From Brachypterus glaber (taxonomy: Eukaryota > Arthropoda > Insecta > Coleoptera > Kateretidae), in contig OY294049.1 of NCBI GenBank assembly GCA_958510825.1, positions 31,152,774 through 31,216,773 on the forward strand: DNA of 64,000 bases, given 5' to 3'. The notes below the pieces were generated by a model. The model had not been told where the DNA came from, ran no database searches, and worked only from the letters and a program-made list of their open reading frames with translations. The translations under genes and the position numbers were made by a program. Below are positions 18,421-64,000 of the stretch, one piece after another (position 1 is the stretch's first letter; every line of letters begins with the position of its first letter).

Positions 18421-18620
18421 NNNNNNNNNNNNNNNNNNNNNNNNNNNNNNNNNNNNNNNNNNNNNNNNNNNNNNNNNNNNNNNNNNNNNNNNNNNNNNNN
18501 NNNNNNNNNNNNNNNNNNNNNNNNNNNNNNNNNNNNNNNNNNNNNNNNNNNNNNNNNNNNNNNNNNNNNNNNNNNNNNNNNNNNNNNNNNNNNNNNNNNN
18601 NNNNNNNNNNNNNNNNNNNN
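18421..18620. other. Assembly gap (200 N)
   Basis: Exactly 200 undetermined bases separate the satellite from the body of the errantivirus 5' LTR. By comparison with the complete LTR, 49 bases of the LTR start lie in the gap. The round length suggests an arbitrary gap size. Confidence 0.97.
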
Positions 18621-18643
18621 TATCTAAGCATTGTCTATTTTTC

Positions 18644-18651
18644 TATATAAG
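18644..18651 (+). promoter_or_regulatory. LTR TATA box
   Basis: TATATAAG is the best TATA match in the LTR. The same motif lies at 27059-27066 in the 3' LTR. An ACAGTTT motif about 30 bp downstream (near 18674) could be the initiator. The functional reading is inference. Confidence 0.6.
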
Positions 18652-18782
18652 CAAATTGCTCTCGTGCCAATAGAACAGTTTGAATCTAGCCATCATAGAG
18701 CACGTTACTCTGTCAGTTTATTTTAAAGTTGTAATTAAAGTTGTAATAACCAACCAAGTGACTTATTTACCTAAATCTACCA

Positions 18783-18809
18783 AATAAATAACTTTCTAAA
18801 CTAAATAAA
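18783..18809 (+). promoter_or_regulatory. LTR polyadenylation signals
   Basis: Two AATAAA hexamers (18783-18788 and 18804-18809) lie in the downstream half of the LTR. They are repeated at 27198-27203 and 27219-27224, where they would act on the full-length transcript. Confidence 0.55.
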
Positions 18810-18902
18810 AACCTGTTGACTTACAAGTTGGTAACTTATAACCTGGTGTCAGAAAAACCTTTTTAAAAACTTTGTCTGTGTGTCGAGGCATACAACATAA
18901 AT

Positions 18903-19322: not shown

Positions 19323-20447
19323 ATGTCACAAGACAACTTAAACTTATATCAAGATTCAAAAGAATATCATCCTGGTGGTTCACAAAAACCACTTGATTCT
19401 CAAATTCAAGATACTAATCTTAATCAAACTCAATACACAGATGAAGAATCTGTTAACTCCGTTAGGAGGCAACCAATAGAATTACCATTAACAGTTCTAT
19501 TTAAATTTATACAGCCATTTGCAGGTGATCGATTACAGTTGAGTACTTTCATTCAAAATACCAATAGTGCATTTTCCTTAGCGACGGAAAATCAAACCGA
19601 TAGTCTATTTTTATATGTAGTATCACAAGTTTCTAATAATGTTGTTAATGAAATCGAAATGTCGGAGATTGATTCTTGGTATCAATTAAAAACTAAATTA
19701 AAACAATACTATGGACAATCAAAACATCCAGTTCAGGCTCACGAGGAACTGGAAACCATTAAGCAATTCGCTAACGAATCAATAACCGATTTTTTCAAAA
19801 GAATGGAAAAAGTAAAAAATTGTTGCATACAGTCAGAGGTCAATAGTTGTGAGTCTCCTGAAGACTTGCCCGGACTAAAAAGGGCAATTCAAAGGACTGC
19901 ACTGCGTCGTTTCATTATCCATTGCAAGCCTGAAATTAGCCAAATGCTAAGGGCACGCGAAATTAGTACCTTAAATGATGCTTACAATTTAGCTCTCCAA
20001 GAGGAAAAAATTATAAACTATACAAAAAATAAACCTCATTCAAGTTCTAATATTTATTGTAAAAACTGCAAAAGCGGTACACATTCAACTCAAAATTGTC
20101 GAAAATCCCGTGGTCCTTATAGGCCACCTCCTGCAGCTACAGCAGGGCACTCAAATACAAATCATAACTCTTATAACTCTTATAACTCTTATCAAAATCC
20201 TAACTCAGCTCAAAATACTAGTTATAATCAAAAATTTTGCAATTACTGCAAAAAGAATGGACATTTAATTAACGAATGTCGTAAGCGACAATTCAATAAT
20301 AATCAAAGAAATCTACAAAATCCAAGAGTAAACCATATAAATACAAATCAAACAAATTCTAATTCTTTAAACTCGCAAGTTCCGACTGCGTCCAATGCCC
20401 CACAGTCTCAAGGAACCAACTTAGCGGCATTTCCTTCAAACCAGTAA
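19323..20447 (+). CDS. gag: Gag polyprotein, errantivirus copy 1
   Basis: This 374-residue protein would form the capsid shell and package the RNA. Residues about 52-240 resemble the Ty3/gypsy capsid region (FIQPFAGDR and a helical NESITDFFKRMEKVKN segment). Two CCHC zinc knuckles of the form C-x2-C-x4-H-x4-C follow at 246-259 and 306-319, separated by a Pro/Asn/Tyr-rich linker, and the C-terminal tail is Asn/Gln-rich. The Gags of the well-known Drosophila errantiviruses generally lack such knuckles, so this copy differs from them. The ATG is the first after the leader repeats. The pol frame is in the -1 phase relative to gag and is open back to about 20363, which gives an 85-base overlap for possible frameshifting. 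No classical slippery heptamer was seen. Confidence 0.93.
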   Translation: MSQDNLNLYQDSKEYHPGGSQKPLDSQIQDTNLNQTQYTDEESVNSVRRQPIELPLTVLFKFIQPFAGDRLQLSTFIQNTNSAFSLATENQTDSLFLYVVSQVSNNVVNEIEMSEIDSWYQLKTKLKQYYGQSKHPVQAHEELETIKQFANESITDFFKRMEKVKNCCIQSEVNSCESPEDLPGLKRAIQRTALRRFIIHCKPEISQMLRAREISTLNDAYNLALQEEKIINYTKNKPHSSSNIYCKNCKSGTHSTQNCRKSRGPYRPPPAATAGHSNTNHNSYNSYNSYQNPNSAQNTSYNQKFCNYCKKNGHLINECRKRQFNNNQRNLQNPRVNHINTNQTNSNSLNSQVPTASNAPQSQGTNLAAFPSNQ

Positions 20448-20455
20448 CCTTAAAT

Positions 20456-22060
20456 ATGTGCGATAACTCAAAATCTAACTTTAAAACAGTAAACTTCAAT
20501 CTAAATGATAACTCAAAATCTAATTTAAAAACAATAACTTTTCATATGTCAAACGCATTAAATGGTAAAATTACTTTTTTAATTGATACTGGTTCTACCT
20601 CAACAATTATAAAGTCAACGTCCCTTATTCCGCATTTAACTCCTTTAAATAAAAAAGATGTCATCGAAATCAACGGCATTGTTCCGTACACACCTATTTA
20701 TTCGTTTGGGTCAGCAGATCTGGAATTCAGTATAAACAATCTTAATATTCCACACAAAAGTCACGTAGTCAATGGACTAGAAATTCAAAGTATTTATGAC
20801 GGAATATTAGGAAATGATTTTTTAAAAAAACATAATGTGTTAATTGATTTCAGTAATGACTTAATAATTATAAATAATCAAAAAATTAAATTTAATAACT
20901 CAGAAAATATTCTTCTAGAAAATGAAAATAAAAATTCGAATGAGACTTCTATGAAAAATATTGTAGAAAACTCATTGGAAACTACTACAAATTCTACTGC
21001 TAAACTCAAAGTTCCTGCTAATTGTCATTATTTAGCTGAAATTAATATTTCAAATAATTCAAAATCAGGTCTTATAAAAAAACAAGAAATTTTTAAAAAT
21101 ACTTTTATACCTGATATTTTGGTAAACAATGACAATCAAAAAGCAATTGTTCCTATTTTGAACTTAAATCAAAAAGAAATAACAATTGATATTCCCACAG
21201 TAGAATTAGTAGACATCGCGACTTTTGCTGAGATAAATAATATTCAAACAGATAAAGTGAACTTGAACTCTAAAGATAGAGAAAATAAACTGTTACAATT
21301 ACTTCGCACAAATCATTTAACTAATAAAGAAAAAGATTATATTCTTACAGTTTGTAAAGAATTTTCCGATTTATTTCATATAAAAGGTGAATACTTAACT
21401 ACTACCAATATAATTAAACATGCTATTCATACAAAAAACGACGTTCCTATTTCTTGTAAACAATATAGATATCCTAGAATTCATGAAGATGAAGTCAATA
21501 TTCAAATAAAAGATATGCTGAATCAAAACATTATACGTAATTCAAAATCTCCTTACTCTAGTAACTTATGGGTCGTTCCTAAGAAACTAGACGCTTCCGG
21601 AAAAAGGAAGTGGCGTCTCGTAATTGATTACAGAAAACTTAATGAGATCACAATTGGTGATATTTATCCTCTTCCTAATATAGAAAATATTTTGGACAAG
21701 TTAGGTAACGCAAAATATTTCACTGTTATAGATCTTTCATCTGGCTTCCATCAAATCGAAATGGAAGAATCAGATAAACATAAAACTGCTTTTTCTACTC
21801 CTACAGGACATTACGAATTCAATCGAATGCCCTTTGGTTTAAAATCCAGTCCGAACACGTTCTGTCGTATGATGACGCTTGTCTTGTCAGATTTGTTAGG
21901 CATAGCTTGTTTTTGTTACTTAGACGATATAATTATTTTTGGAGTTGACTTAGAAAGTCACATTAAAAATATTAAATTAGTTTTTCAACGTCTACGTGAA
22001 CATAATCTTAAAGTACAGCCTGATAAATGTGAATTTTGCATCACGAAATTCAATTCCTAG
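20456..22060 (+). CDS. pol: Pol 5' part (protease and reverse transcriptase), frameshifted copy
   Basis: This holds the aspartic protease and the polymerase part of RT. The protease motif DTGST is at residues 44-48, and the second protease landmark ILGNDFL is near 117-123. RT landmarks are WRLVIDYRKLN (386-396), the catalytic Asp in VIDLSSG (D426), MPFGLKSSP (458-466) and the YLDD box (488-491). The last seven residues (528-534) are out of frame. A T run that has five bases in copy 2 has four here (22034-22037), so translation stops at 22060. The ATG at 20456 may not be the real start, because the frame is open upstream into gag and Gag-Pol frameshifting is usual. This copy cannot make full-length Pol as read, unless the missing T is a sequencing error. 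Confidence 0.92.
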   Translation: MCDNSKSNFKTVNFNLNDNSKSNLKTITFHMSNALNGKITFLIDTGSTSTIIKSTSLIPHLTPLNKKDVIEINGIVPYTPIYSFGSADLEFSINNLNIPHKSHVVNGLEIQSIYDGILGNDFLKKHNVLIDFSNDLIIINNQKIKFNNSENILLENENKNSNETSMKNIVENSLETTTNSTAKLKVPANCHYLAEINISNNSKSGLIKKQEIFKNTFIPDILVNNDNQKAIVPILNLNQKEITIDIPTVELVDIATFAEINNIQTDKVNLNSKDRENKLLQLLRTNHLTNKEKDYILTVCKEFSDLFHIKGEYLTTTNIIKHAIHTKNDVPISCKQYRYPRIHEDEVNIQIKDMLNQNIIRNSKSPYSSNLWVVPKKLDASGKRKWRLVIDYRKLNEITIGDIYPLPNIENILDKLGNAKYFTVIDLSSGFHQIEMEESDKHKTAFSTPTGHYEFNRMPFGLKSSPNTFCRMMTLVLSDLLGIACFCYLDDIIIFGVDLESHIKNIKLVFQRLREHNLKVQPDKCEFCITKFNS

Positions 22061-24852
22061 GTCATATAGTATCAGACAAGGGTATAAAACCTAATCCAGA
22101 AAAAGTAGAAGCAATAACAAAAATTCAACCTCCCAAAACTCAAAGAGAAATAAAAATATTTTTAGGACTAGTCAACTATTATCGTAAATTCATTAAAGAC
22201 TTTTCCTCTATCGCAAAACCCCTTACTTCTTTATTAAAAAAGGACACAAAATTTGTATGGACAAATAAATGTCAAGAATCCTTCGAATATTTAAAAACTA
22301 TTCTTACTAAAGAACCAATATTACAATTTCCAGTACACAGTAAAAAATATATTTTAACTACAGACGCTTCCAACGATGGTATTTCAGGAATCTTATCCCA
22401 AGGTGAAATAGGTAAAGATTTGCCTATTGCCTATTTTTCAAAAACATTAAATAAAGCACAAAGAGCATATTCGACAACGGATAAAGAACTCTATGCGATC
22501 GTAGAATCATGTAAACACTTTAGGCCATATCTCTTTGGCACAATTCCTTTTGACATAGTTTGTGACCATAGGCCTTTAGTATGGTTAAATAATTGTAAAG
22601 ATCCATGTAGTCGTCTTTTACGGTGGCGATTAAAATTAATGGACTATCAGTACGAAATCAAATATAAAAAAGGTCGTGAAAATTCAAATTGCGATGCTTT
22701 ATCACGTTTAGGTCATAACCAAAACTTATTCGAAGAAATTGTAAATAAAAATTTACAAATCGAAAACGATAACTTAAAAATCATTCCTGATGATTTATTT
22801 AACTCAAAAACTTCTCTAGCTCATTGCGTTTCTAAAGACTTTTACATGAACAAAGGCATAGCCTTAGAATTTAAAAATAAATTCAATTCAATAGATAAAC
22901 TAAAACGGCAAAATAAGCAAATAGGCGATGTTGCACATATTGAAATAGATAACAGAAATATTTATTATTTAATAACAAAAGATAAATTTCATGACAAACC
23001 TACGTACAAATCTCTTCATTCAACTCTTGAAAACTTAAAACTTTTATGTTATAAAAATAAAGAAAACGAAATCTCCATACCAAAAATAGGTTCTGGACTA
23101 GATAAACTAGACTGGGACATAGTACTAAACTTAATTAAATTCGTATTCAAAGATTCGCAAATACAAATAAGTATTTATACAAAACCAACCCCTAGTCATC
23201 AAATAAATTTTATAGATACTGATAATGACGAATTAACCTTTGAAAATTTCAAAAATTTCCATCAAAGGGAAATTCGCGTTCCAAAACCAAAAACAACTAA
23301 CTCTCCTCTAAATAAAATAAAAAATATCGTAATACCTATATCTTGCGATCTTTCAAATAATAATAAATATATCGATTATATATATAAAAATAATTTAACA
23401 CTTCCTCAAAAACCAAATATTAAAGAAATAAATGTAAAAAGGCTTCCACAGCAATCAATTTACATTGCATTTATAAAACCCTTTATAGACGAATCAGCAT
23501 TATACGAGGATCTTTTTGATACTTTGTACAATTTAAGAATTTTATTACAGCATAATAGCACACTTTGTTTTGCTATTCCTGATATCTCTATCGATAATAC
23601 AATAATTCAACAAGACACTTTTCATAGCTTACTTTACTTTCTTTTTAGGGAATTTAAATACGAAATTATACAGGATGTAAGAATAACCCTTACAGACCCG
23701 GATTTAATTAAACTTATTTTAAAAGAAAATCACGTTTTACCCACCGGAGGACATCAAGGTTTCGAAAGAACCTATGAAAAGATTAAAGACCAATTTTATT
23801 GGGACAATATGAAATCTCAAATTCGCGAATATATAAAAAGCTGTCCAATTTGTCAAAAATCAAAAACCGATTTTAAGCATAATAAAAGTCCAATGATAAT
23901 CACTACTACTTCTTCCAAATTTATGGAACAAGTAGCACTCGATATTGTCGGTCCAATTTCGGAAACACAAAACGGAAATCGATTTATTCTAACTTTACAG
24001 GACGATTTGACAAAATTTATCCAAGCATTTGCAATGCCAAATCATGAAGCTGCTACCACAGCTATACATTTTCTTAAATTTTGCACCCAATTCGGTTTTC
24101 CTACCTATATCTTAACAGATCAAGGAAAGGAGTTTACTTCCAATACATTTAAAGAAATGAATAAAATATTAACAATTAAACATAAAATGGCAAGTCCATA
24201 TAGGTCTATGACAAATGGTAGCCTAGAACGGACTCATTTAACCCTTAAGGATTATTTAAAATGTTACGTCAATAAAGATACAAATAATTGGGATGAATTT
24301 CTAAATCTAGCTATTTTTACTTATAATTCTAATATTCATAAATCTACTCATAAAACTCCATATGAGTTAGTATTTGGTCAAAGAGCAAGAATACCTAATT
24401 TTATAACTACCCCTAAAACAAAACCAAATTATTCCGACTTAGCAAACGATATTGCTAATAAATTAAGAATAATTCGAGAAACAGCTAAAGAAAGTCAAGT
24501 GCAATCTAAACAAAATTCTAAAACGTATTTTGATCAAACACATAACAGGGAATATAAATTCCATGTAGGACAATCAGTACTATTATACGATAGCCTCTCA
24601 AAAGTAAAAAATAAAAAGTTAGCAAAAAATTATAAAGGCCCCTATAAAATTATAGAAATAAATGACAACAATACTGCTTTATTAGAAATGAAACCTTTAA
24701 GTTTTAAAACTTATCATTTCGATAAATTAAAACCCTATACTATTGTTTCAGAAAACAATAGCAGCGGTCATGAAGATAACAACGACAGTCATTCCAGTAT
24801 TTCTCCTAATCCTAATCTCTACGAACCTCAACCAAGCACATCTCAATTATGA
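22036..24852 (+). CDS. pol: Pol 3' part (RT end, RNase H, macrodomain, integrase), copy 1
   Basis: This continues pol in the shifted frame and has no start codon of its own. Numbering is within this segment. RNase H: D110 (TTDAS), E151 (KELYA), D177 (CDHRP), D220 (NCDALSR). Residues about 247-385 resemble a TARG1/OARD1-type macrodomain: LAHCVSKD, MNKGIA, YYLITK (K315), KPTY and IGSGLDKLDW (D356). Residues about 428-550 look like a degenerate second copy. Integrase: zinc-binding HH..CC (H566, H573, C603, C606) and catalytic D636, D695, E731 with D,D35E spacing. S724 replaces a Pro found in copy 2. The end overlaps env by 110 bases in another frame. Confidence 0.92.
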   Translation: MHHEIQFLGHIVSDKGIKPNPEKVEAITKIQPPKTQREIKIFLGLVNYYRKFIKDFSSIAKPLTSLLKKDTKFVWTNKCQESFEYLKTILTKEPILQFPVHSKKYILTTDASNDGISGILSQGEIGKDLPIAYFSKTLNKAQRAYSTTDKELYAIVESCKHFRPYLFGTIPFDIVCDHRPLVWLNNCKDPCSRLLRWRLKLMDYQYEIKYKKGRENSNCDALSRLGHNQNLFEEIVNKNLQIENDNLKIIPDDLFNSKTSLAHCVSKDFYMNKGIALEFKNKFNSIDKLKRQNKQIGDVAHIEIDNRNIYYLITKDKFHDKPTYKSLHSTLENLKLLCYKNKENEISIPKIGSGLDKLDWDIVLNLIKFVFKDSQIQISIYTKPTPSHQINFIDTDNDELTFENFKNFHQREIRVPKPKTTNSPLNKIKNIVIPISCDLSNNNKYIDYIYKNNLTLPQKPNIKEINVKRLPQQSIYIAFIKPFIDESALYEDLFDTLYNLRILLQHNSTLCFAIPDISIDNTIIQQDTFHSLLYFLFREFKYEIIQDVRITLTDPDLIKLILKENHVLPTGGHQGFERTYEKIKDQFYWDNMKSQIREYIKSCPICQKSKTDFKHNKSPMIITTTSSKFMEQVALDIVGPISETQNGNRFILTLQDDLTKFIQAFAMPNHEAATTAIHFLKFCTQFGFPTYILTDQGKEFTSNTFKEMNKILTIKHKMASPYRSMTNGSLERTHLTLKDYLKCYVNKDTNNWDEFLNLAIFTYNSNIHKSTHKTPYELVFGQRARIPNFITTPKTKPNYSDLANDIANKLRIIRETAKESQVQSKQNSKTYFDQTHNREYKFHVGQSVLLYDSLSKVKNKKLAKNYKGPYKIIEINDNNTALLEMKPLSFKTYHFDKLKPYTIVSENNSSGHEDNNDSHSSISPNPNLYEPQPSTSQL
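22774..23190 (+). other. TARG1/OARD1-like macrodomain encoded in pol (copy 1)
   Basis: About 139 residues between RNase H and integrase follow the order of motifs in the TARG1 (OARD1/C6orf130) ADP-ribose-glycohydrolase macrodomain. These are LAHCVSKD, a glycine-containing MNKGIA, VAHIEIDNRNIYYLITK, KPTYKSL and PKIGSGLDKLDW. In human TARG1 the catalytic residues are Lys84 (end of YYLITK) and Asp125 (in GLD), and both positions are kept here (K315, D356 of the pol segment). The predicted activity is removal of ADP-ribose from proteins or nucleic acids. Activity in the element is inference, and the family match comes from remembered motifs. Confidence 0.85.
23317..23685 (+). other. Possible second, degenerate macrodomain in pol (copy 1)
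   Basis: Residues about 428-550 of the pol segment echo the preceding macrodomain. They contain IYIAFIKP (compare IYYLITK...KP), ALYEDLFDTLYNLRILLQ (compare PTYKSLHSTLENLKLL) and FAIPDISID (compare SIPKIGSGLD). The glycine loop is lost, so ADP-ribose binding looks unlikely. It may be a pseudo-domain from an internal duplication, or an unrelated spacer fold. Confidence 0.4.
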
Positions 24853-26776
24853 AATAAAGCAATTTGATACAACGTCAGGCTTATTATACAATAATCTAGG
24901 CAAAGCACATATATCAAATGACAGGCACGCTTTATTAACTTACTATAACTTATCGCAGATAGATATAAACATAAATAAAATATACAATTATTACTCTTTA
25001 TCTTTAGATATTTGCAACTTTGCATTATCGGATCATATTTCATTAGATTGTAAGAACCAATTAAGGTACATAAACACAAAGTTTCTTTCTATTCGAGAAT
25101 CTTACAAAATAATTTCTCACGAAATTAATATTTTATCAAGGAAAAAACGCGGCTTAGTAAATTTAGTCGGCGATGCATTTAAATGGTTATTCGGAACACC
25201 AGACGCTGAAGACGCACAATTTTATACCGATTCCATAAATCAAATTATTAATAATGAAAAACAAACAGACGTACTTATGCAGCAACAAGTTTCTATTATT
25301 TCGCAAACTATAACAAATTTCAATAACTCTATTGTGAAAATGAATGAAAATATTCTAACTCTAAATAAAAATTTGCAATATTTTAATAATTTTACTAACG
25401 AAGTAAAAGACTATAAAAAACAATTAGATTTTGAACTTGAAATATCAAATCACATGATATTATTAATCGAAATGACCGATGAAATACAAAATACTCTCGA
25501 AAATTATGTAAATGATGTATCACTGATACAACATGGCATAATCAATTATCGAATCTTAGCTCCAGAAATATTATACAGGGAGTTACAGAAAATCTCTACA
25601 AAATTTAATCTGCCAATTCCTTTATCAGTCGAAAACATTTATTTATATTACAAAATTATTAGTTTAAAATCATTTATAAAAGATAAATTATTGGTTATTT
25701 CATTCGAAATACCTATAGTTCTGTCAAACGAATACGATCTTTATCAAATCTTTTCATTGCCAAATCCACATAAAAATGATGCAAACCTATTTTCATACAT
25801 TGAACCATCAAAACCTTATATCCTTTTATCCTCCACCAGAACTTTCTTCATATTAATTGAGGATCTTGTAAATTGCAACCAATACGTTCCTTCGAAATGG
25901 CTCTGCAAAAACATGCCTACACTACGAAAATCCACATCAGACGAAAAAGTCCAGCTACTCATGAAAACCACAACGAAAATTCCTTCCACCTGCAAAACCA
26001 GAAATCTAATTGCAGATATGGAAATTTGGCATCAGCTACAAAATAACCAATGGTTCTTTGTCACGTCCAAACCACTTCAAATTTCAATCATCTGTGCTAA
26101 TCAAAACAGTCAAACAGATGTCATTCAAAATTCTGGCATTTTAAGTCTACACGAACACTGTCAGGCTTACACAAATCAAGTCACTCTACAAACTCAAAAT
26201 ATACTCTCAACTCAAAATCTCACCAACGAGATTCCACTAACCGACATCACAGAAGACGATTGTTGTAGGAGATTAAAGAAAAATCTTACAATAAACTCCA
26301 TCCATATGGAACCCATTAAACTCGCAAATTTGGATCTCCATGAACTCAGATATGCTCAACAAAAACTCTCAGAATTCGATGAGCAACTTCAACAACAATT
26401 GAACAAACCATTCATTGTAAAACAAACTTTTTGGTACACATCAATTCTTTCAATAATCTGTGGCCTTATTGCACTATTTCTCCTGTACAAACTTCTGAAA
26501 TACTTTGGTATTATCAATCTCTTATCAAAGTGTTTTAACTCCAGCAAATCATGTTCCAGTACACCATGTTTTCAAATTTTCAATCAGTGTCATAGAGAAC
26601 CGATTGAAAATCCAACTTTCATCCACTACGACTCCGAAACACAGCGGATCGATTACCCCGCAGTGTCCTACACGCAACCAGAACGAGAAGTTCGAGAAAA
26701 GCCGTCAACTTCTTCACAGGCATCATCCCTTAGACGTTCCACACGGATTTCGAAAAAGAAAATATTAACAGATTAA
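24743..26776 (+). CDS. env: Envelope glycoprotein, errantivirus copy 1
   Basis: This 677-residue protein has the layout of errantivirus Env, a relative of baculovirus F-type fusion proteins. A hydrophobic signal peptide lies at about residues 11-32. A furin-type site RKKR is at 133-136, followed by GLVNLVGDAFKWLFG, the usual segment after cleavage. A central helical region and a cysteine-rich stem follow. A membrane anchor lies at about 563-585, with a ~92-residue basic tail. The start overlaps the end of pol by 110 bases, so expression from a spliced RNA is likely, as in gypsy. Compared with copy 2 this protein lacks one residue, a cysteine, near position 410 (a net 3-base difference beside an A run). 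Binding partners cannot be inferred. Confidence 0.92.
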   Translation: MFQKTIAAVMKITTTVIPVFLLILISTNLNQAHLNYEIKQFDTTSGLLYNNLGKAHISNDRHALLTYYNLSQIDININKIYNYYSLSLDICNFALSDHISLDCKNQLRYINTKFLSIRESYKIISHEINILSRKKRGLVNLVGDAFKWLFGTPDAEDAQFYTDSINQIINNEKQTDVLMQQQVSIISQTITNFNNSIVKMNENILTLNKNLQYFNNFTNEVKDYKKQLDFELEISNHMILLIEMTDEIQNTLENYVNDVSLIQHGIINYRILAPEILYRELQKISTKFNLPIPLSVENIYLYYKIISLKSFIKDKLLVISFEIPIVLSNEYDLYQIFSLPNPHKNDANLFSYIEPSKPYILLSSTRTFFILIEDLVNCNQYVPSKWLCKNMPTLRKSTSDEKVQLLMKTTTKIPSTCKTRNLIADMEIWHQLQNNQWFFVTSKPLQISIICANQNSQTDVIQNSGILSLHEHCQAYTNQVTLQTQNILSTQNLTNEIPLTDITEDDCCRRLKKNLTINSIHMEPIKLANLDLHELRYAQQKLSEFDEQLQQQLNKPFIVKQTFWYTSILSIICGLIALFLLYKLLKYFGIINLLSKCFNSSKSCSSTPCFQIFNQCHREPIENPTFIHYDSETQRIDYPAVSYTQPEREVREKPSTSSQASSLRRSTRISKKKILTD

Positions 26777-26986: not shown

Positions 26987-27312
26987 TGTTGGCACCCCCC
27001 ATAACAGAGCCCCCCTTTGTTATTTACTTTTCCCTTATCTAAGCATTGTCTATTTTTCTATATAAGCAAATTGCTCTCGTGCCAATAGAACAGTTTGAAT
27101 CTAGCCATCATAGAGCACGTTACTCTGTCAGTTTATTTTAAAGTTGTAATTAAAGTTGTAATAACCAACCAAGTGACTTATTTACCTAAATCTACCAAAT
27201 AAATAACTTTCTAAACTAAATAAAAACCTGTTGACTTACAAGTTGGTAACTTATAACCTGGTGTCAGAAAAACCTTTTTAAAAACTTTGTCTGTGTGTCG
27301 AGGCATACAACA
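26987..27312 (+). repeat. 3' LTR of errantivirus copy 1 (complete, 326 bp)
   Basis: It starts TGTTGGCACC and ends GGCATACAACA, so the ends form the 5-bp inverted repeat TGTTG/CAACA. A short purine stretch (GGAGG) precedes it, so the polypurine tract is weak. It looks identical in length and sequence to the LTR at 57569-57894. Confidence 0.95.
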
Positions 27313-27936: not shown

Positions 27937-30900
27937 TCACAGCACCCAAGTCGAAAAAAAGCTAAAAAATATATCTTCCCGTAGTAGTGGGGTCCTAATT
28001 TTTTCAGAGTGGGTTTCTTATTACTGTTAGACTAATTTAAAATCATATTGGTTTTGGGTCAAAGTCTCTGAGAGGCTCAAAAAAATAAATTCAGTCACAG
28101 CACCCAGGTCGATAAAAAGCTAAACAATACATCTTCCCGTAGTAGTAGGGTCCTAATTTTTTCAGAGTGGGTTTCTCATCACTGTTAGACTAATTTACAA
28201 TCATATTGGTTTTGGGTCAAAGTCACTGAGAGGCTCAAAAAAATAAATTCAGTCACAGCACCCGGGTCGAAAAAAAGGTAAAAAATATATCTTCCCGTAG
28301 TAGTAGGGTCCTAATTTTTTCAGAGTGGGTTTCTCATCACTGTTAGACTAATTTAAAATCATATTGGTTTTGGGTCAAAGTCTCTGAGAGGCTCAAAAAA
28401 ATAAATTCAGTCACAGCACCCAGGTCGATAAAAAGCTAAAAAATATATCTTCCCGTAGTAGTAGGGTCCTAATTTTTTTAGAGTGGATTTCTCATTACTA
28501 TTAGACTAATTTAAAATCATATTGGTTTTGGGTCAAAGTCTCTGAGAGGCTCAAAAAAATAAATTCAGTCACAGCACCCAGGTCGAAAAAAAGCTAAAAA
28601 ATATATCTTCCCGTAGTAGTAGGGTCCTAATTTTTTCAGAGTGGGTTTCTCATCACTGTTAGACTAATTTACAATCATATTGGTTTTGGGTCAAAGACAC
28701 TGAGAGGCTCAAAAAAATAAATTCAGTCACAGCACCAAGGTCGAAAAAAAGCTAAAAAATATATCTTTCCGTAGTAGTAGGGTCCTAATTTTTTCAGAGT
28801 GGGTTTCTCATCACTGTTAGACTAATTTAAAATCATATTGGTTTTGGGTCAAAGTCTCTGAGAGGCTCAAAAAAATAAATTCAGTCACAGCACCCAGGTC
28901 GATAAAAAGCTAAACAATACATCTTCCCGTAGTAGTAGGGTCCTAATTTTTTCAGAGTGGGTTTCTCATCAATGTTAGACTAATTTAAAATCATATTGGT
29001 TTTGGGTCAAAATCTCTGAGAGGCTCAAAAAAATAAATTCAGTCACAGCACCCAGGTCGATAAAAAGCTAAAAAATATATCTTCCCGTAGTAGTAGGGTC
29101 CTAATTTTTTTAGAATGGATTTCTCATTACTATTAGACTAATTTAAAATCATATTGGTTTTGGGTCAAAGTCTCTGAGAGGCTCAAAAAAATAAATTCAG
29201 TCACAGCACCCAGGTCGAAAAAAAGCTAAAAAATATATCTTCCCGTAGTAGTAGGGTCCTAATTTTTTTAGAGTGGATTTCTCATTACTATTAGACTAAT
29301 TTAAAATCATATTGGTTTTGGGTCAAAGTCTCCGAGAGGCTCAAAAAAATAAATTCAGTCACAGCACCCAGGTCGAAAAAAAGCTAAAAAATATATCTTC
29401 CCGTAGGAGTAGGGTCCTAATTTTTTCAGAGTGGGTTTCTTATTACTGTTAGACTAATTTAAAATCATATTGGTTTTGGGTCAAAGTTTCTGAGAGGCTC
29501 AAAAAAATAAATTCAGTCACAGCACCCAGGTCGATAAAAAGCTAAAAAATACATCTTCCCGTAGTAGTAGGGTCCTAATTTTTTCAGAGTGGGTTTCTCA
29601 TCACTGTTGGACTAATTTAAAATCATATTGGTTTTGGGTCAAAATCTCTGAGAGGCTCAAAAAAATAAATTCAGTCACAGCACCCAGGTCGAAAAAAAGC
29701 TAAAAAATATATCTTCCCGTAGTAGTAGGGTCCTAATTTTTTTAGAGTGGATTTCTCATTACTATTAGACTAATTTAAAATCATATTGGTTTTGGGTCAA
29801 AGTCTCTGAGAGGCTCAAAAAAATAAATTCAGTCACAGCACCCAGTTCGAAAAAAAGCTAAAAAATATATCTTCCCGTAGCAGTAGGGTCCTAATTTTTT
29901 TAGAGTGGGTTTTTCATCACTGTTAGACTAATTTACAATCATATTGGTTTTGGGTCAAAGTCACTGAGAGGCTCAAAAAAATAAATTCAGTCACAGCACC
30001 CAGGTCGAAAAAAAGCTAAAAAATATATCTTCCCGTAGTAGTAGGGTCCTAATTTTTTCAGAGTGGGTTTCTTATCACTGTTAGACTAATTTAAAATCAT
30101 ATTGGTTTTGGGTCAAAGTCTCTAAGAGGCTCAAAAAAATAAATTCAGTCACAGCACCCAGGTCGAAAATAAGCTAAAAAATATATCTTCCCGTAGTAGT
30201 AGGGTCCTAATTTTTTTAGAGTGGGTTTTTCATCACTGTTAGACTAATTTAAAATCATATTGGTTTTGGGTCAAAGACACTGAGAGGCTCAAAAAAATAA
30301 ATTCAGTCACAGCACCAAGGTCGAAAAAAAGCTAAAAAATATATCTTCCCGTAGTAGTAGGGTCCTAATTTTTTCAAAGTGGGTTTCTCATCACTGTTAG
30401 ACTAATTTAAAATCATATTGGTTTTGGGTCAAAGTCTCTGAGAGGCTCAAAAGAATAAATTCAGTCACAGCACCCAGGTCGAAAAAAAGCTAAAAAATAT
30501 ATCTTCCCGTAGTAGTAGGGTCCTAATTTTTTCAGAGTGGGTTTCTCATCACTGTTGGACTAATTTAAAATCATATTGGTTTTGGGTCAAAGTCTCTGAG
30601 AGGCTCAAAAATATAAATTCAGTCACAGCACCCAGGTCGATAAAAAGCTAAAAAATACATCTTCCCGTAGTAGTAGGGTCCTAATTTTTTTAGAATGGAT
30701 TTCTCATTACTATTAGACTAATTTAAAATCATATTGGTTTTGGGTCAAAGTCTCTGAGAGGCTCAAAAAAATAAATTCAGTCACAGCACCCAGGTCGAAA
30801 AAAAGCTAAAAAATATATCTTCCCGTAGTAGTAGGGTCCTAATTTTTTCAGAGTGGGTTTCTCATCACTGTTAGACTAATTTACAATCATATTGGTTTTG

Positions 30901-57568: not shown

Positions 57569-57894
57569 TGTTGTATGCCTCGACACACAGACAAAGTTTT
57601 TAAAAAGGTTTTTCTGACACCAGGTTATAAGTTACCAACTTGTAAGTCAACAGGTTTTTATTTAGTTTAGAAAGTTATTTATTTGGTAGATTTAGGTAAA
57701 TAAGTCACTTGGTTGGTTATTACAACTTTAATTACAACTTTAAAATAAACTGACAGAGTAACGTGCTCTATGATGGCTAGATTCAAACTGTTCTATTGGC
57801 ACGAGAGCAATTTGCTTATATAGAAAAATAGACAATGCTTAGATAAGGGAAAAGTAAATAACAAAGGGGGGCTCTGTTATGGGGGGTGCCAACA
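57569..57894 (-). repeat. 3' LTR of errantivirus copy 2 (complete, 326 bp)
   Basis: The ends are TGTTG/CAACA, and by eye the sequence is identical to the 3' LTR of copy 1 (26987-27312). The flank outside the LTR begins ATATAT, as in copy 1. Confidence 0.95.
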
Positions 57895-58117
57895 CCTCCG
57901 GGGTGTTTGAGATTTTTGTTAAGGTTTGAAAATTTTTTGAACAGAAAATTGTAAATTGAAAACAAAAATCTTAGTATAAAATATAAATATAACTTAAGAT
58001 ATTTCAATGTAAAATTGTAGAATTAAGTATAATATAAGTAATAGAATATAATATAGAATATAATATGTAAAAATGTATAAGTATAAAAATTAAAATTAAG
58101 TCACTATTAAAAGTCTT

Positions 58118-60154
58118 TTAATCTGTTAATATTTTCTTTTTCGAAATCCGTGTGGAACGTCTAAGGGATGATGCCTGTGAAGAAGTTGACGGCTTTTCTC
58201 GAACTTCTCGTTCTGGTTGCGTGTAGGACACTGCGGGGTAATCGATCCGCTGTGTTTCGGAGTCGTAGTGGATGAAAGTTGGATTTTCAATCGGTTCTCT
58301 ATGACACTGATTGAAAATTTGAAAACATGGTGTACTGGAACATGATTTGCTGGAGTTAAAACACTTTGATAAGAGATTGATAATACCAAAGTATTTCAGA
58401 AGTTTGTACAGGAGAAATAGTGCAATAAGGCCACAGATTATTGAAAGAATTGATGTGTACCAAAAAGTTTGTTTTACAATGAATGGTTTGTTCAATTGTT
58501 GTTGAAGTTGCTCATCGAATTCTGAGAGTTTTTGTTGAGCATATTTGAGTTCATGGAGATCCAAATTTGCGAGTTTAATGGGTTCCATATGGATGGAGTT
58601 TATTGTAAGATTTTTCTTTAATCTCCTACAACAATCGTCTTCTGTGATGTCGGTTAGTGGAATCTCGTTGGTGAGATTTTGAGTTGAGAGTATATTTTGA
58701 GTTTGTAGAGTGACTTGATTTGTGTAAGCCTGACAGTGTTCGTGTAGACTTAAAATGCCAGAATTTTGAATGACATCTGTTTGACTGTTTTGATTAGCAC
58801 AGATGATTGAAATTTGAAGTGGTTTGGACGTGACAAAGAACCATTGGTTATTTTGTAGCTGATGCCAAATTTCCATATCTGCAATTAGATTTCTGGTTTT
58901 GCAGGTGGAAGGAATTTTCGTTGTGGTTTTCATGAGTAGCTGGACTTCGCATTCGTCTGATGTGGATTTTCGTAGTGTAGGCATGTTTTTGCAGAGCCAT
59001 TTCGAAGGAACGTATTGGTTGCAATTTACAAGATCCTCAATTAATATGAAGAAAGTTCTGGTGGAGGATAAAAGGATATAAGGTTTTGATGGTTCAATGT
59101 ATGAAAATAGGTTTGCATCGTTTTTATGTGGATTTGGTAATGAAAAGATTTGATAAAGATCGTATTCGTTTGACAGAACTATAGGTATTTCGAATGAAAT
59201 AACCAATAATTTATCTTTTATAAATGATTTTAAACTAATAATTTTGTAATATAAATAAATGTTTTCGACTGATAAAGGAATTGGCAGATTAAATTTTGTA
59301 GAGATTTTCTGTAACTCCCTGTATAATATTTCTGGAGCTAAGATTCGATAATTGATTATGCCATGTTGTATCAGTGATACATCATTTACATAATTTTCGA
59401 GAGTATTTTGTATTTCATCGGTCATTTCGATTAATAATATCATGTGATTTGATATTTCAAGTTCAAAATCTAATTGTTTTTTATAGTCTTTTACTTCGTT
59501 AGTAAAATTATTAAAATATTGCAAATTTTTATTTAGAGTTAGAATATTTTCATTCATTTTCACAATAGAGTTATTGAAATTTGTAATAGTTTGCGAAATA
59601 ATAGAAACTTGTTGCTGCATAAGTACGTCTGTTTGTTTTTTATTATTAATAATTTGATTTATGGAATCGGTATAAAATTGTGCGTCTTCAGCGTCTGGTG
59701 TTCCGAATAACCATTTAAATGCATCGCCGACTAAATTTACTAAGCCGCGTTTTTTCCTTGATAAAATATTAATTTCGTGAGAAATTATTTTGTAAGATTC
59801 TCGAATAGAAAGAAACTTTGTGTTTATGTACCTTAATTGGTTCTTACAATCTAATGAAATATGATCCGATAATGCAAAGTTGCAAATATCTAAAGATAAA
59901 GAGTAATAATTGTATATTTTATTTATGGTTATATCTATCTGCGATAAGTTATAGTAAGTTAATAAAGCGTGCCTGTCATTTGATATATGTGCTTTGCCTA
60001 GATTATTGTATAATAAGCCTGACGTTGTATCAAATTGCTTTATTTCATAATTGAGATGTGCTTGGTTGAGGTTCGTAGAGATTAGGATTAGGAGAAATAC
60101 TGGAATGACTGTCGTTGTTATCTTCATGACCGCTGCTATTGTTTTCTGAAACAA
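58118..60154 (-). CDS. env: Envelope glycoprotein, errantivirus copy 2
   Basis: At 678 residues it has one residue more than copy 1. The layout is the same: signal peptide, RKKR cleavage site at about 133-136 followed by GLVNLVGDAF, helical ectodomain, C-terminal membrane anchor and basic tail. Near residue 410 it has a cysteine that copy 1 lacks. Other differences are a few single substitutions, for example T for N near residue 76 and K for E in the NNKKQTD segment. The start overlaps the pol end by 110 bases, exactly as in copy 1. The frame is complete, so the protein could be made from a suitably spliced RNA. Confidence 0.93.
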   Translation of the reverse strand: MFQKTIAAVMKITTTVIPVFLLILISTNLNQAHLNYEIKQFDTTSGLLYNNLGKAHISNDRHALLTYYNLSQIDITINKIYNYYSLSLDICNFALSDHISLDCKNQLRYINTKFLSIRESYKIISHEINILSRKKRGLVNLVGDAFKWLFGTPDAEDAQFYTDSINQIINNKKQTDVLMQQQVSIISQTITNFNNSIVKMNENILTLNKNLQYFNNFTNEVKDYKKQLDFELEISNHMILLIEMTDEIQNTLENYVNDVSLIQHGIINYRILAPEILYRELQKISTKFNLPIPLSVENIYLYYKIISLKSFIKDKLLVISFEIPIVLSNEYDLYQIFSLPNPHKNDANLFSYIEPSKPYILLSSTRTFFILIEDLVNCNQYVPSKWLCKNMPTLRKSTSDECEVQLLMKTTTKIPSTCKTRNLIADMEIWHQLQNNQWFFVTSKPLQISIICANQNSQTDVIQNSGILSLHEHCQAYTNQVTLQTQNILSTQNLTNEIPLTDITEDDCCRRLKKNLTINSIHMEPIKLANLDLHELKYAQQKLSEFDEQLQQQLNKPFIVKQTFWYTSILSIICGLIALFLLYKLLKYFGIINLLSKCFNSSKSCSSTPCFQIFNQCHREPIENPTFIHYDSETQRIDYPAVSYTQPEREVREKPSTSSQASSLRRSTRISKKKILTD

Positions 60155-63100
60155 TAGTATAGGGTTTTAATTTATCGAAATGATAAGTTTTAAAACTTAA
60201 AGGTTTCATTTCTAATAAAGCAGTATTGTTGTCATTTATTTCTATAATTTTATAGGGGCCTTTATAATTTTTTGCTAACTTTTTATTTTTTACTTTTGAG
60301 AGGCTATCGTATAATAGTACTGATTGTCCTACATGGAATTTATATTCCCTGTTATGTGTTTGATCAAAATACGTTTTAGAATTTTGTTTAGATTGCACTT
60401 GACTTTCTTTAGCTGTTTCTCGAATTATTCTTAATTTATTAGCAATATCGTTTGCTAAGTCGGAATAATTTGGTTTTGTTTTAGGGGTAGTTATAAAATT
60501 AGGTATTCTTGCTCTTTGACCAAATACTAACTCATATGGAGTTTTATGAGTAGATTTATGAATATTAGAATTATAAGTAAAAATAGCTAGATTTAGAAAT
60601 TCATCCCAATTATTTGTATCTTTATTGACGTAACATTTTAAATAATCCTTAAGGGTTAAATGAGTCCGTTCTAGGCTACCATTTGTCATAGGCCTATATG
60701 GACTTGCCATTTTATGTTTAATTGTTAATATTTTATTCATTTCTTTAAATGTATTTGAAGTAAATTCCTTTCCTTGATCTGTTAAGATATAGGTAGGAAA
60801 ACCGAATTGGGTGCAAAATTTAAGAAAATGTATAGCTGTGGTAGCAGCTTCATGATTTGGCATTGCAAATGCTTGGATAAATTTTGTCAAATCGTCCTGT
60901 AAAGTTAGAATAAATCGATTTCCGTTTTGTGTTTCCGAAATTGGACCGACAATATCGAGTGCTACTTGTTCCATAAATTTGGAAGAAGTAGTAGTGATTA
61001 TCATTGGACTTTTATTATGCTTAAAATCGGTTTTTGATTTTTGACAAATTGGACAGCTTTTTATATATTCGCGAATTTGAGATTTCATATTATCCCAATA
61101 AAATTGGTCTTTAATCTTTTCATAGGTTCTTTCGAAACCTTGATGTCCTCCGGTGGGTAAATCGTGATTTTCTTTTAAAATAAGTTTAATTAAATCCGGG
61201 TCTGTAAGGGTTATTCTTACATCCTGTATAATTTCGTATTTAAATTCCCTAAAAAGAAAGTAAAGTAAGCTATGAAAAGTGTCTTGTTGAATTATTGTAT
61301 TATCGATAGAGACATCAGGAATAGCAAAACAAAGTGTGCTATTATGCTGTAATAAAATTCTTAAATTGTACAAAGTATCAAAAAGATCCTCGTATAATGC
61401 TGATTCGTCTATAAAGGGTTTTATAAATGCAATGTAAATTGATTGCTGTGGAAGCCTTTTTACATTTATTTCTTTAATATTTGGTTTTTGAGGAAGTGTT
61501 AAATTATTTTTATATATATAATCGATATATTTATTATTATTTGAAAGATCGCAAGATATAGGTATTACGATATTTTTTATTTTATTTAGAGGAGAGTTAG
61601 TTGTTTTTGGTTTTGGAACGCGAATTTCCCTTTGATGGAAATTTTTGAAATTTTCAAAGGTTAATTCGTCATTATCAGTATCTATAAAATTTATTTGATG
61701 ACTAGGGGTTGGTTTTGTATAAATACTTATTTGTATTTGCGAATCTTTGAATACGAATTTAATTAAGTTTAGTACTATGTCCCAGTCTAGTTTATCTAGT
61801 CCAGAACCTATTTTTGGTATGGAGATTTCGTTTTCTTTATTTTTATAACATAAAAGTTTTAAGTTTTCAAGAGTTGAATGAAGAGATTTGTACGTAGGTT
61901 TGTCATGAAATTTATCTTTTGTTATTAAATAATAAATATTTCTGTTATCTATTTCAATATGTGCAACATCGCCTATTTGCTTATTTTGCCGTTTTAGTTT
62001 ATCTATTGAATTAAATTTATTTTTAAATTCTAAGGCTATGCCTTTGTTCATGTAAAAGTCTTTAGAAACGCAATGAGCTAGAGAAGTTTTTGAGTTAAAT
62101 AAATCATCAGGAATGATTTTTAAGTTATCGTTTTCAATTTGTAAATTTTTATTTACAATTTCTTCGAATAAGTTTTGGTTATGACCTAAACGTGATAAAG
62201 CATCGCAATTTGAATTTTCACGACCTTTTTTATATTTGATTTCGTACTGATAGTCCATTAATTTTAATCGCCACCGTAAAAGACGACTACATGGATCTTT
62301 ACAATTATTTAACCATACTAAAGGCCTATGGTCACAAACTATGTCAAAAGGAATTGTGCCAAAGAGATATGGCCTAAAGTGTTTACATGATTCTACGATC
62401 GCATAGAGTTCTTTATCCGTTGTCGAATATGCTCTTTGTGCTTTATTTAATGTTTTTGAAAAATAGGCAATAGGCAAATCTTTACCTATTTCACCTTGGG
62501 ATAAGATTCCTGAAATACCATCGTTGGAAGCGTCTGTAGTTAAAATATATTTTTTACTGTGTACTGGAAATTGTAATATTGGTTCTTTAGTAAGAATAGT
62601 TTTTAAATATTCGAAGGATTCTTGACATTTATTTGTCCATACAAATTTTGTGTCCTTTTTTAATAAAGAAGTAAGGGGTTTTGCGATAGAGGAAAAGTCT
62701 TTAATGAATTTACGATAATAGTTGACTAGTCCTAAAAATATTTTTATTTCTCTTTGAGTTTTGGGAGGTTGAATTTTTGTTATTGCTTCTACTTTTTCTG
62801 GATTAGGTTTTATACCCTTGTCTGATACTATATGACCTAGGAATTGAATTTCGTGATGCAAAAATTCACATTTATCAGGCTGTACTTTAAGATTATGTTC
62901 ACGTAGACGTTGAAAAACTAATTTAATATTTTTAATGTGACTTTCTAAGTCAACTCCAAAAATAATTATATCGTCTAAGTAACAAAAACAAGCTATGCCT
63001 AACAAATCTGACAAGACAAGCGTCATCATACGACAGAACGTGTTCGGACTGGATTTTAAACCAAAGGGCATTCGATTGAATTCGTAATGTCCTGTAGGAG

Positions 63101-64000
63101 TAGAAAAAGCAGTTTTATGTTTATCTGATTCTTCCATTTCGATTTGATGGAAGCCAGATGAAAGATCTATAACAGTGAAATATTTTGCGTTACCTAACTT
63201 GTCCAAAATATTTTCTATATTAGGAAGAGGATAAATATCACCAATTGTGATATCATTAAGTTTTCTGTAATCAATTACGAGACGCCACTTCCTTTTTCCG
63301 GAAGCGTCTAGTTTCTTAGGAACGACCCATAAGTTACTAGAGTAAGGAGATTTTGAATTACGTATAATGTTTTGATTCAGCATATCTTTTATTTGAATAT
63401 TGACTTCATCTTCATGAATTCTAGGATATCTATATTGTTTACAAGAAATAGGAACGTCGTTTTTTGTATGAATAGCATGTTTAATTATATTGGTAGTAGT
63501 TAAGTATTCACCTTTTATATGAAATAAATCGGAAAATTCTTTACAAACTGTAAGAATATAATCTTTTTCTTTATTAGTTAAATGATTTGTGCGAAGTAAT
63601 TGTAACAGTTTATTTTCTCTATCTTTAGAGTTCAAGTTCACTTTATCTGTTTGAATATTATTTATCTCAGCAAAAGTCGCGATGTCTACTAATTCTACTG
63701 TGGGAATATCAATTGTTATTTCTTTTTGATTTAAGTTCAAAATAGGAACAATTGCTTTTTGATTGTCATTGTTTACCAAAATATCAGGTATAAAAGTATT
63801 TTTAAAAATTTCTTGTTTTTTTATAAGACCTGATTTTGAATTATTTGAAATATTAATTTCAGCTAAATAATGACAATTAGCAGGAACTTTGAGTTTAGCA
63901 GTAGAATTTGTAGTAGTTTCCAATGAGTTTTCTACAATATTTTTCATAGAAGTCTCATTCGAATTTTTATTTTCATTTTCTAGAAGAATATTTTCTGAGT
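60045..64000 (-). CDS. pol: Pol polyprotein, errantivirus copy 2 (5' end outside window)
   Basis: The frame is open from the window edge to its stop without interruption. The first ATG, at 63947, is internal and probably not the start; 1300 residues follow it. The protease motif itself lies beyond the edge. The order is RT with YLDD, RNase H (Asp/Glu set TTDAS, KELYA, CDHRP, NCDALSR), the TARG1-like macrodomain (about residues 609-747, with K677 and D718 at the catalytic positions), a second macrodomain-like segment, and then integrase with HHCC and D,D35E. Where copy 1 has a four-T run, this copy has five (62860-62864), so it reads through. PYRPMTNG in integrase has the Pro that is Ser in copy 1. 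Confidence 0.95.
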   Translation of the reverse strand, partial: SENILLENENKNSNETSMKNIVENSLETTTNSTAKLKVPANCHYLAEINISNNSKSGLIKKQEIFKNTFIPDILVNNDNQKAIVPILNLNQKEITIDIPTVELVDIATFAEINNIQTDKVNLNSKDRENKLLQLLRTNHLTNKEKDYILTVCKEFSDLFHIKGEYLTTTNIIKHAIHTKNDVPISCKQYRYPRIHEDEVNIQIKDMLNQNIIRNSKSPYSSNLWVVPKKLDASGKRKWRLVIDYRKLNDITIGDIYPLPNIENILDKLGNAKYFTVIDLSSGFHQIEMEESDKHKTAFSTPTGHYEFNRMPFGLKSSPNTFCRMMTLVLSDLLGIACFCYLDDIIIFGVDLESHIKNIKLVFQRLREHNLKVQPDKCEFLHHEIQFLGHIVSDKGIKPNPEKVEAITKIQPPKTQREIKIFLGLVNYYRKFIKDFSSIAKPLTSLLKKDTKFVWTNKCQESFEYLKTILTKEPILQFPVHSKKYILTTDASNDGISGILSQGEIGKDLPIAYFSKTLNKAQRAYSTTDKELYAIVESCKHFRPYLFGTIPFDIVCDHRPLVWLNNCKDPCSRLLRWRLKLMDYQYEIKYKKGRENSNCDALSRLGHNQNLFEEIVNKNLQIENDNLKIIPDDLFNSKTSLAHCVSKDFYMNKGIALEFKNKFNSIDKLKRQNKQIGDVAHIEIDNRNIYYLITKDKFHDKPTYKSLHSTLENLKLLCYKNKENEISIPKIGSGLDKLDWDIVLNLIKFVFKDSQIQISIYTKPTPSHQINFIDTDNDELTFENFKNFHQREIRVPKPKTTNSPLNKIKNIVIPISCDLSNNNKYIDYIYKNNLTLPQKPNIKEINVKRLPQQSIYIAFIKPFIDESALYEDLFDTLYNLRILLQHNSTLCFAIPDVSIDNTIIQQDTFHSLLYFLFREFKYEIIQDVRITLTDPDLIKLILKENHDLPTGGHQGFERTYEKIKDQFYWDNMKSQIREYIKSCPICQKSKTDFKHNKSPMIITTTSSKFMEQVALDIVGPISETQNGNRFILTLQDDLTKFIQAFAMPNHEAATTAIHFLKFCTQFGFPTYILTDQGKEFTSNTFKEMNKILTIKHKMASPYRPMTNGSLERTHLTLKDYLKCYVNKDTNNWDEFLNLAIFTYNSNIHKSTHKTPYELVFGQRARIPNFITTPKTKPNYSDLANDIANKLRIIRETAKESQVQSKQNSKTYFDQTHNREYKFHVGQSVLLYDSLSKVKNKKLAKNYKGPYKIIEINDNNTALLEMKPLSFKTYHFDKLKPYTIVSENNSSGHEDNNDSHSSISPNPNLYEPQPSTSQL
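61707..62123 (-). other. TARG1/OARD1-like macrodomain encoded in pol (copy 2)
   Basis: It appears identical in protein sequence to the copy-1 domain, in an intact polyprotein frame. The motifs MNKGIA, YYLITK, KPTY and GLDKLDW are all present, including both residues aligned with the TARG1 catalytic Lys and Asp. Confidence 0.85.

What the first reader, a model, noticed from the sequence alone, without database searches (positions are those of the whole stretch)
22774..23190. Macrodomain (TARG1/OARD1-like) built into errantivirus Pol between RNase H and integrase
The segment follows the motif order of TARG1-type macrodomains and keeps the positions of both catalytic residues (Lys at the end of YYLITK, Asp in GLD). 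Standard errantivirus Pol is described as protease-RT-RNase H-integrase. An ADP-ribose hydrolase inside Pol would suggest that the element counters host ADP-ribosylation (PARP-type defence or DNA-damage signalling at integration), much as macrodomains of some RNA viruses do. I do not know of a description of this arrangement. Similar elements may already be annotated in databases as OARD1-like.
Basis: partly seen in the sequence, partly recalled or inferred. Interest (0 to 1): 0.9.

Follow-up and report, generated by a model that had tools for sequence, protein, structure and literature searches.

The report
ADP-ribose-removing enzyme inside retroelement polymerase protein
A family of insect retrovirus-like elements carries, fused in front of its integrase, a copy of the animal enzyme TARG1 that strips ADP-ribose marks from proteins and nucleic acids, which hints that these elements have to disarm an ADP-ribose-based host response when they copy or insert themselves.

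The parts
18621..18897 (+). 5' LTR, cut by an assembly gap (N at 18421-18620)
   Evidence: 277 nt identical to 27036-27312; N run 18421-18620
26987..27312 (+). 3' LTR, 326 nt
   Evidence: matches the second element's LTR 57894-57569 over 326 nt at 100% and 18621-18897 over 277 nt at 100%
19323..20447 (+). gag
   Evidence: ORF; Retrotrans_gag E 5.6e-8
20456..22060 (+). pol, first part: protease and reverse transcriptase; the frame changes near the end of RT, so this copy of pol is split
   Evidence: RVP E 5.3e-4 at its cut-off, RVT_1 E 6.1e-37; ORFs
22042..22773 (+). pol: end of RT region and RNase H
   Evidence: PF17919 E 3e-33, PF17917 E 3.3e-33; translation
22774..23190 (+). TARG1-type macrodomain 1, catalytic residues present
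22978..22980 (+). codon of catalytic Lys (TARG1 K84)
23101..23103 (+). codon of catalytic Asp (TARG1 D125)
23326..23670 (+). macrodomain 2, decayed: no Asp at the aligned D125 position, glycine loop lost; borders set by eye
23731..24849 (+). integrase (H2C2 zinc finger with first His at 23731, core, C-terminal SH3-like region below cut-off)
   Evidence: PF17921 E 2.4e-21, PF00665 E 6.8e-13, PF24626 E 2.5e-4 below cut-off; first His
24743..26776 (+). env, Baculo_F type
   Evidence: PF12259 E 6.2e-33
61707..62123 (-). macrodomain 1 of a second copy of the element; protein identical
   Evidence: 1 of 417 nt differs; translation
60045..63947 (-). pol ORF of the second copy, open over at least 1300 residues; the match runs on to the window end
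57569..57894 (-). 3' LTR of the second copy
   Evidence: 326 of 326 nt identical

Best explanation
The segment is an ADP-ribosylhydrolase domain of the TARG1/OARD1 type, acquired by an insect Gypsy-type endogenous retrovirus lineage and kept as part of Pol. SHOWN by computation: fold, active-site residues, position in Pol, spread in a clade of related Pol proteins. INFERRED: after Pol maturation it stays on the N-terminal side of integrase and enters the nucleus with the pre-integration complex. There it uses the TARG1 mechanism (Lys forms a covalent intermediate with ADP-ribose, Asp resolves it) to remove mono-ADP-ribose that host PARPs put on viral proteins, chromatin, or the phosphate ends of viral RNA or cDNA, and so blunts a PARP-dependent block to reverse transcription, integration or gap repair. 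In the ladybird-type elements the domain was duplicated: copy 1 kept the active site, copy 2 next to integrase lost it and is probably a structural spacer. My confidence is about 0.97 that it is a TARG1-type macrodomain, 0.8 that it is catalytic, and 0.5 that its job is to counter host ADP-ribosylation in the nucleus.
Against: No activity was measured. The strict TARG1 signature is matched by only 14 of 23 related Pol macrodomains; the other 9 have changes in the TK or GxGxD stretches and may be weaker enzymes. The related proteins were found by similarity to the domain, so part of the conservation is built in. The catalytic residues of the other viruses' domains were not checked, and some are far (the entomopoxvirus one 23% identical). 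That the domain stays with integrase is read from linker lengths only; no cleavage site was mapped. Beetle elements have the decayed copy, not the active one, next to integrase. Insects have few PARP genes (recalled, no call), so a response as in mammals cannot be assumed. This window copy has a split pol.
Confidence: 0.55

Rival explanations
1. Reader, not eraser: the domain chiefly binds ADP-ribose and steers the integrase complex to PARP-marked chromatin or DNA breaks, so that it sets target-site choice, as chromodomains do in chromoviruses (comparison recalled).
For: Short fixed spacing to integrase in the single-macro elements; TARG1 accumulates at damage sites depending on PAR (PMC8053099); 9 of 23 Pol macros have altered loops.
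Against: Lys84 and Asp125 equivalents kept in 24 of 24; a pure reader would not need both.
Confidence: 0.2
2. Structural part of integrase: macrodomains took over the role of the N-terminal extension domain that some retroviral integrases have before the zinc finger (recalled), and catalysis is a remnant.
For: Macro 2 has lost the active site but not its place before H2C2; single macros sit 15-18 residues from H2C2.
Against: Macro 1 and the single macros keep the active-site residues.
Confidence: 0.17
3. The hydrolase acts outside the nucleus, on Gag, Pol or genomic RNA in the cytoplasm or particle, to undo host ADP-ribosylation there, like the macrodomains of coronaviruses and alphaviruses.
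For: Domains of this fold occur in RNA viruses of arthropods; TARG1 acts on RNA ends.
Against: Place next to integrase rather than in a separate ORF.
Confidence: 0.25
4. Assembly chimera or a chance host gene insertion with no role.
For: One assembly gap next to the 5' LTR; pol of this copy is split.
Against: Same domain in a second copy with 1 of 417 nt different and a different 3' flank, and in 23 Pol proteins from other sources, following the Pol tree in the main splits.
Confidence: 0.01

Closest known systems
TARG1 / OARD1 / C6orf130 (human; PDB 4j5q, 4j5r, 4j5s, 2eee, 2l8r, 2lgr)
   Same: Fold (0.7 A), 44-45% identity, K84 and D125, S35, signature pattern
   Different: Stand-alone host enzyme; here a domain inside a retroelement Pol
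DarG macrodomain (bacterial antitoxin that removes ADP-ribose from DNA; role recalled)
   Different: About 22% identity; bacterial; paired with a toxin
Viral macrodomains (alphavirus nsP3; arthropod RNA and DNA viruses; Kadipiro virus VP8)
   Same: Virus-borne macrodomain; the Kadipiro one is as close as human TARG1 (47% identity)
Fish epsilon-like endogenous retroviruses with macro-domain ORFs (Basta 2009)
   Same: A retrovirus with a macro domain
   Different: Described as additional ORFs (one passage of a review, PMC4977317; Basta 2009 itself not held); whether they are of TARG1 type was not seen
Lentiviral dUTPase between RNase H and integrase (recalled)
   Same: An extra enzyme at the same place in Pol
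   Different: Other enzyme, other fold
Ladybird and aphid Pol proteins among P0004-P0008, P0011-P0028, one named 'Integrase, Macro domain' (Cinara cedri, P0024)
   Same: The same architecture
   Different: In 22 of 23 BLAST found one macro place; only the ladybird one (P0004) has two

Membership tests
TARG1/OARD1-type macrodomain | Sequence and fold closest to TARG1 | tested here: met
TARG1/OARD1-type macrodomain | Catalytic Lys84 and Asp125 | tested here: met
TARG1/OARD1-type macrodomain | Signature TKx(30,35)Px[IL]GxGxD | tested here: met
   window matches; 14 of 23 related Pol macros do
TARG1/OARD1-type macrodomain | Hydrolysis of mono-ADP-ribose | not testable with these tools
   needs an assay
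TARG1/OARD1-type macrodomain (macro 2 at 23326-23670) | Macro fold | tested here: met
TARG1/OARD1-type macrodomain (macro 2 at 23326-23670) | Catalytic Asp125 | tested here: not met
   T in window, S in P0004 at the aligned column; the alignment is loose there and the window has an Asp two residues before, P0004 none near
Metaviridae, Ty3/Gypsy type | LTRs; gag; pol order PR-RT-RH-IN | tested here: met
   (with the macrodomains between RH and IN)
Genus Errantivirus (insect endogenous retrovirus) | env of baculovirus F type downstream of pol | tested here: met
   PF12259 E 6.2e-33; PMC12992720 describes F-type env in this clade (passages)
Genus Errantivirus (insect endogenous retrovirus) | Reverse transcriptase tree places it with Drosophila errantiviruses | not tested
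   no protein named as a Drosophila errantivirus came up in the protein searches
Integrase N-terminal extension domain (role of macro 2) | Lies directly before the HHCC/H2C2 finger and is part of mature integrase | tested here: inconclusive
   position met, 20 residues from macro 2 to first His; maturation unknown

The most novel reading that the evidence does not exclude
A 'macro-integrase': an insect endogenous retrovirus lineage took TARG1 from an animal host once, fused it to integrase, and uses it to clear ADP-ribose from the ends of its own cDNA or from the strand gaps at the insertion site. This would mean that ADP-ribosylation of nucleic-acid ends is a barrier against retroelements in insects. 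In the ladybird branch a duplication then split the job between an active copy and an inactive structural copy.
Probability: 0.18. Interest if true: 0.88.

Novelty: new variant of a known kind. Interest (0 to 1): 0.7.

Why it matters
Viral macrodomains are known from RNA viruses, where they undo PARP-based defence (PMC8053099, passages). An ADP-ribosylhydrolase that is part of a retroelement's Pol, beside integrase, would point to ADP-ribosylation as a barrier to retroelement replication or integration in insects, and gives a defined protein with which to test that. Domains of the same fold in unrelated arthropod viruses make the question wider than one element.

Tried and rejected
Chimera or chance: rejected (second copy; relatives). 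A host OARD1 gene lying beside the element: rejected, since the domain is in frame inside pol in both copies. One duplicated segment instead of two insertions: the 1000 nt after the second copy's 3' LTR match nothing else in the window, and the first 407 nt after the first copy's 3' LTR match nothing else, so the copies look like separate insertions; but the satellite arrays, with 217 nt of flank, are an inverted pair.

Independent second capture as the source of macro 2: less likely. Profile scores of macro 2 (window / ladybird) are 34.2 / 39.0 bits with 22 Pol macros (window and P0004 left out), 8.1 / 21.2 with 11 OARD1-like proteins (human included), 7.2 / 13.5 with 12 viral-contig rows; best shuffle in any of the three 7.7. 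A tree of 37 rows puts macro 2 with the Pol clade (99/95) but on a branch of length 6.45, so its place inside is meaningless, and the AU test does not decide whether it pairs with the beetle macro 1 (p 0.459). The order of duplication and loss is open. Window macro 1 scores higher with the OARD1-like profile (187.5) than with the other Pol macros (168.2; the ladybird one the other way, 170.1 and 186.4), and the Pol clade has only 88/76 support in the tree without macro 2, so a fresh second capture as macro 1 is not excluded.

Origin: Pol macros are one side of a branch, nearest to OARD1-like stand-alone proteins of unnamed organism and human OARD1, away from 12 rows taken from the 52 viral-contig loci, labelled phage by assumption. 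No insect OARD1 was recovered by name. Bacterial relatives were fetched (80 loci) but not put in the tree.

Led nowhere: RNase H scan of viral contigs, no relative; no RNase H in the 52 viral loci; no named errantivirus Pol among the 50 rows seen of the viral structure library, which does not exclude one. Whether Drosophila errantiviruses have a decayed macrodomain there could not be tested. Target-site duplication of the first copy could not be checked because of the N gap; that of the second lies outside the window. Selection on DNA (dN/dS) was not computed.

Papers (ten searches): errantivirus + macro domain 0; macro domain + LTR retrotransposon + ADP-ribose + integrase 0; macro domain + Kadipiro virus 0; macro domain + gypsy + retrotransposon 1, the fish review; macrodomain + retrotransposon + ADP-ribos 21, judged from the listing only; macro domain + endogenous retrovirus 7, of which the aphid virome paper tells of a macro-like region in a flavivirus polyprotein (passages); mixed-term listings, which show only 25 of 679, 15 of 18, 20 of 945 and 25 of 1,569 papers. 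The library lacks most subscription papers and all bioRxiv preprints, so a description elsewhere is possible.

Full report
What is there. The finding lies in an LTR element. LTR copies are at 18621-18897 (cut on its 5' side by an N gap, 18421-18620) and 26987-27312 (326 nt). Between them are gag (Retrotrans_gag), pol in two overlapping frames, and an env of baculovirus F type. Pol domains in order are protease, reverse transcriptase, RNase H, macro, integrase zinc finger and core. The frame changes near the end of reverse transcriptase, so this copy of pol is split; a second copy on the minus strand has pol open over at least 1300 residues.

Second copy. Pieces of pol and env match 58121-63998 on the minus strand at 99-100% protein identity; gag lies beyond the window end. 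Its 3' LTR (57569-57894) is identical over 326 nt; its macrodomain differs by 1 of 417 nt and gives the same protein. The 3' flanks of the two copies do not match each other, so these look like two insertions rather than one duplicated segment, and the domain is not an assembly accident. The element seems to have moved recently in this genome; the whole genome could not be searched, as that tool did not complete.

Relatives. Two region-limited searches gave 23 Pol proteins and two others (P0009, P0010). By BLAST, RNase H lies before the domain in 22 of 23, H2C2 after it in 22 of 23, both in 21 of 23. S35, K84 and D125 are kept in all 23 and the window (24 of 24); T83 in 22 of 24. The strict signature is met in 14 of 23 relatives, 11 of 11 stand-alone proteins (P0029-P0039) and 10 of 12 viral-contig rows. 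The relatives were found by similarity, so this is not an unbiased sample, and two of the macrodomains (P0006, P0027) are identical.

Inheritance. In the tree of 49 rows (P0039 and the macro 2 rows left out) the 24 Pol macros are one side of a branch (support 88/76, not strong), next to OARD1-like proteins; window and ladybird pair at 98/94. For 21 of 24 rows (P0019 and P0025 lacked an integrase piece by my pattern, P0027 dropped as a near-copy; P0024 kept although BLAST had found no RNase H in it) the RNase H + integrase tree and the macro tree agree on the main splits: window + ladybird, then P0005/P0006/P0028, then the rest. Several inner branches differ or are unresolved (P0008, P0020, P0021 among them). 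Pairwise identities correlate at 0.68 over 210 pairs. Mean identity is 0.75 for RNase H, 0.64 for integrase and 0.51 for macro. This fits one acquisition followed by inheritance with Pol, with faster change outside the active site.

Position. In 20 of 23 relatives the macrodomain ends 15-18 residues before the first His of the zinc finger (mean 16.0, SD 0.6), while the stretch from RNase H varies from 28 to 96 residues (mean 59, SD 19; n = 23; 22 in the window). In window and ladybird, macro 2 stands 20 residues before that His. A variable tail on one side and a fixed short link on the other suggest that the domain belongs to integrase after Pol is cut. This is inference.

Function. TARG1 removes mono-ADP-ribose from acidic residues and from 5' or 3' phosphates of DNA and RNA, and gathers at DNA damage (PMC8053099, passages). 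That suits an element whose life includes RNA, cDNA ends and strand gaps. The same fold is found in Kadipiro virus VP8 (a seadornavirus), thrips-associated flavi-, virga- and negev-like viruses, a Cressdnaviricota member, iridescent viruses and an entomopoxvirus, at 23 to 47% identity; their catalytic residues were not checked. P0009 joins a PHD-like finger (below cut-off), a macro and a GDSL-lipase domain, which is the make-up of some non-LTR retroelement ORF1 proteins (recalled). Repeated presence in unrelated arthropod parasites favours a counter-defence role. Which bond it cleaves, on what, and with what gain is unknown.

Novelty. The domain family is known, viral macrodomains are known, and fish endogenous retroviruses with macro-domain ORFs are on record (PMC4977317, one passage). 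A database record already names macro and integrase together for an aphid protein. The ICTV summary of Metaviridae lists Pol as protease, reverse transcriptase, RNase H and integrase (PMC7879559, passages). I saw no paper describing a TARG1-type domain in a retroelement Pol in what the searches listed. I file it as a new variant of a known kind.

Noticed in passing
window 57569-63998 (-): Second copy of the same element, cut by the window end, with pol open in one frame; LTR identical over 326 nt; 3' flank unlike that of the first copy.
   Followed up: yes
window 27937-33692 and 41057-45794: Arrays of a 158-bp satellite, about 36 and 30 copies, in opposite orientation, with 217 nt of shared flank; further tandem arrays around them.
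   Followed up: partly
window 18421-18620: Run of 200 N directly before the 5' LTR; the LTR is cut there.
   Followed up: partly
window 49424-50470 (-): 348-aa ORF resembling a Tc1/mariner-type transposase (HTH and DDE_3 matches; type name recalled).
   Followed up: no
P0009: PHD-like, macro and GDSL-lipase-like domains in one protein, like a non-LTR retroelement ORF1: perhaps another retroelement with a TARG1-type domain.
   Followed up: partly
L001-L052: 52 viral-contig loci encode TARG1/DarG-like macrodomains at 27-42% identity; their neighbours were not read.
   Followed up: no
BFVD hit A0A8E0KJF2: Kadipiro virus VP8 holds the viral domain closest in structure to this one (TM 0.96, 47% identity).
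   Followed up: no
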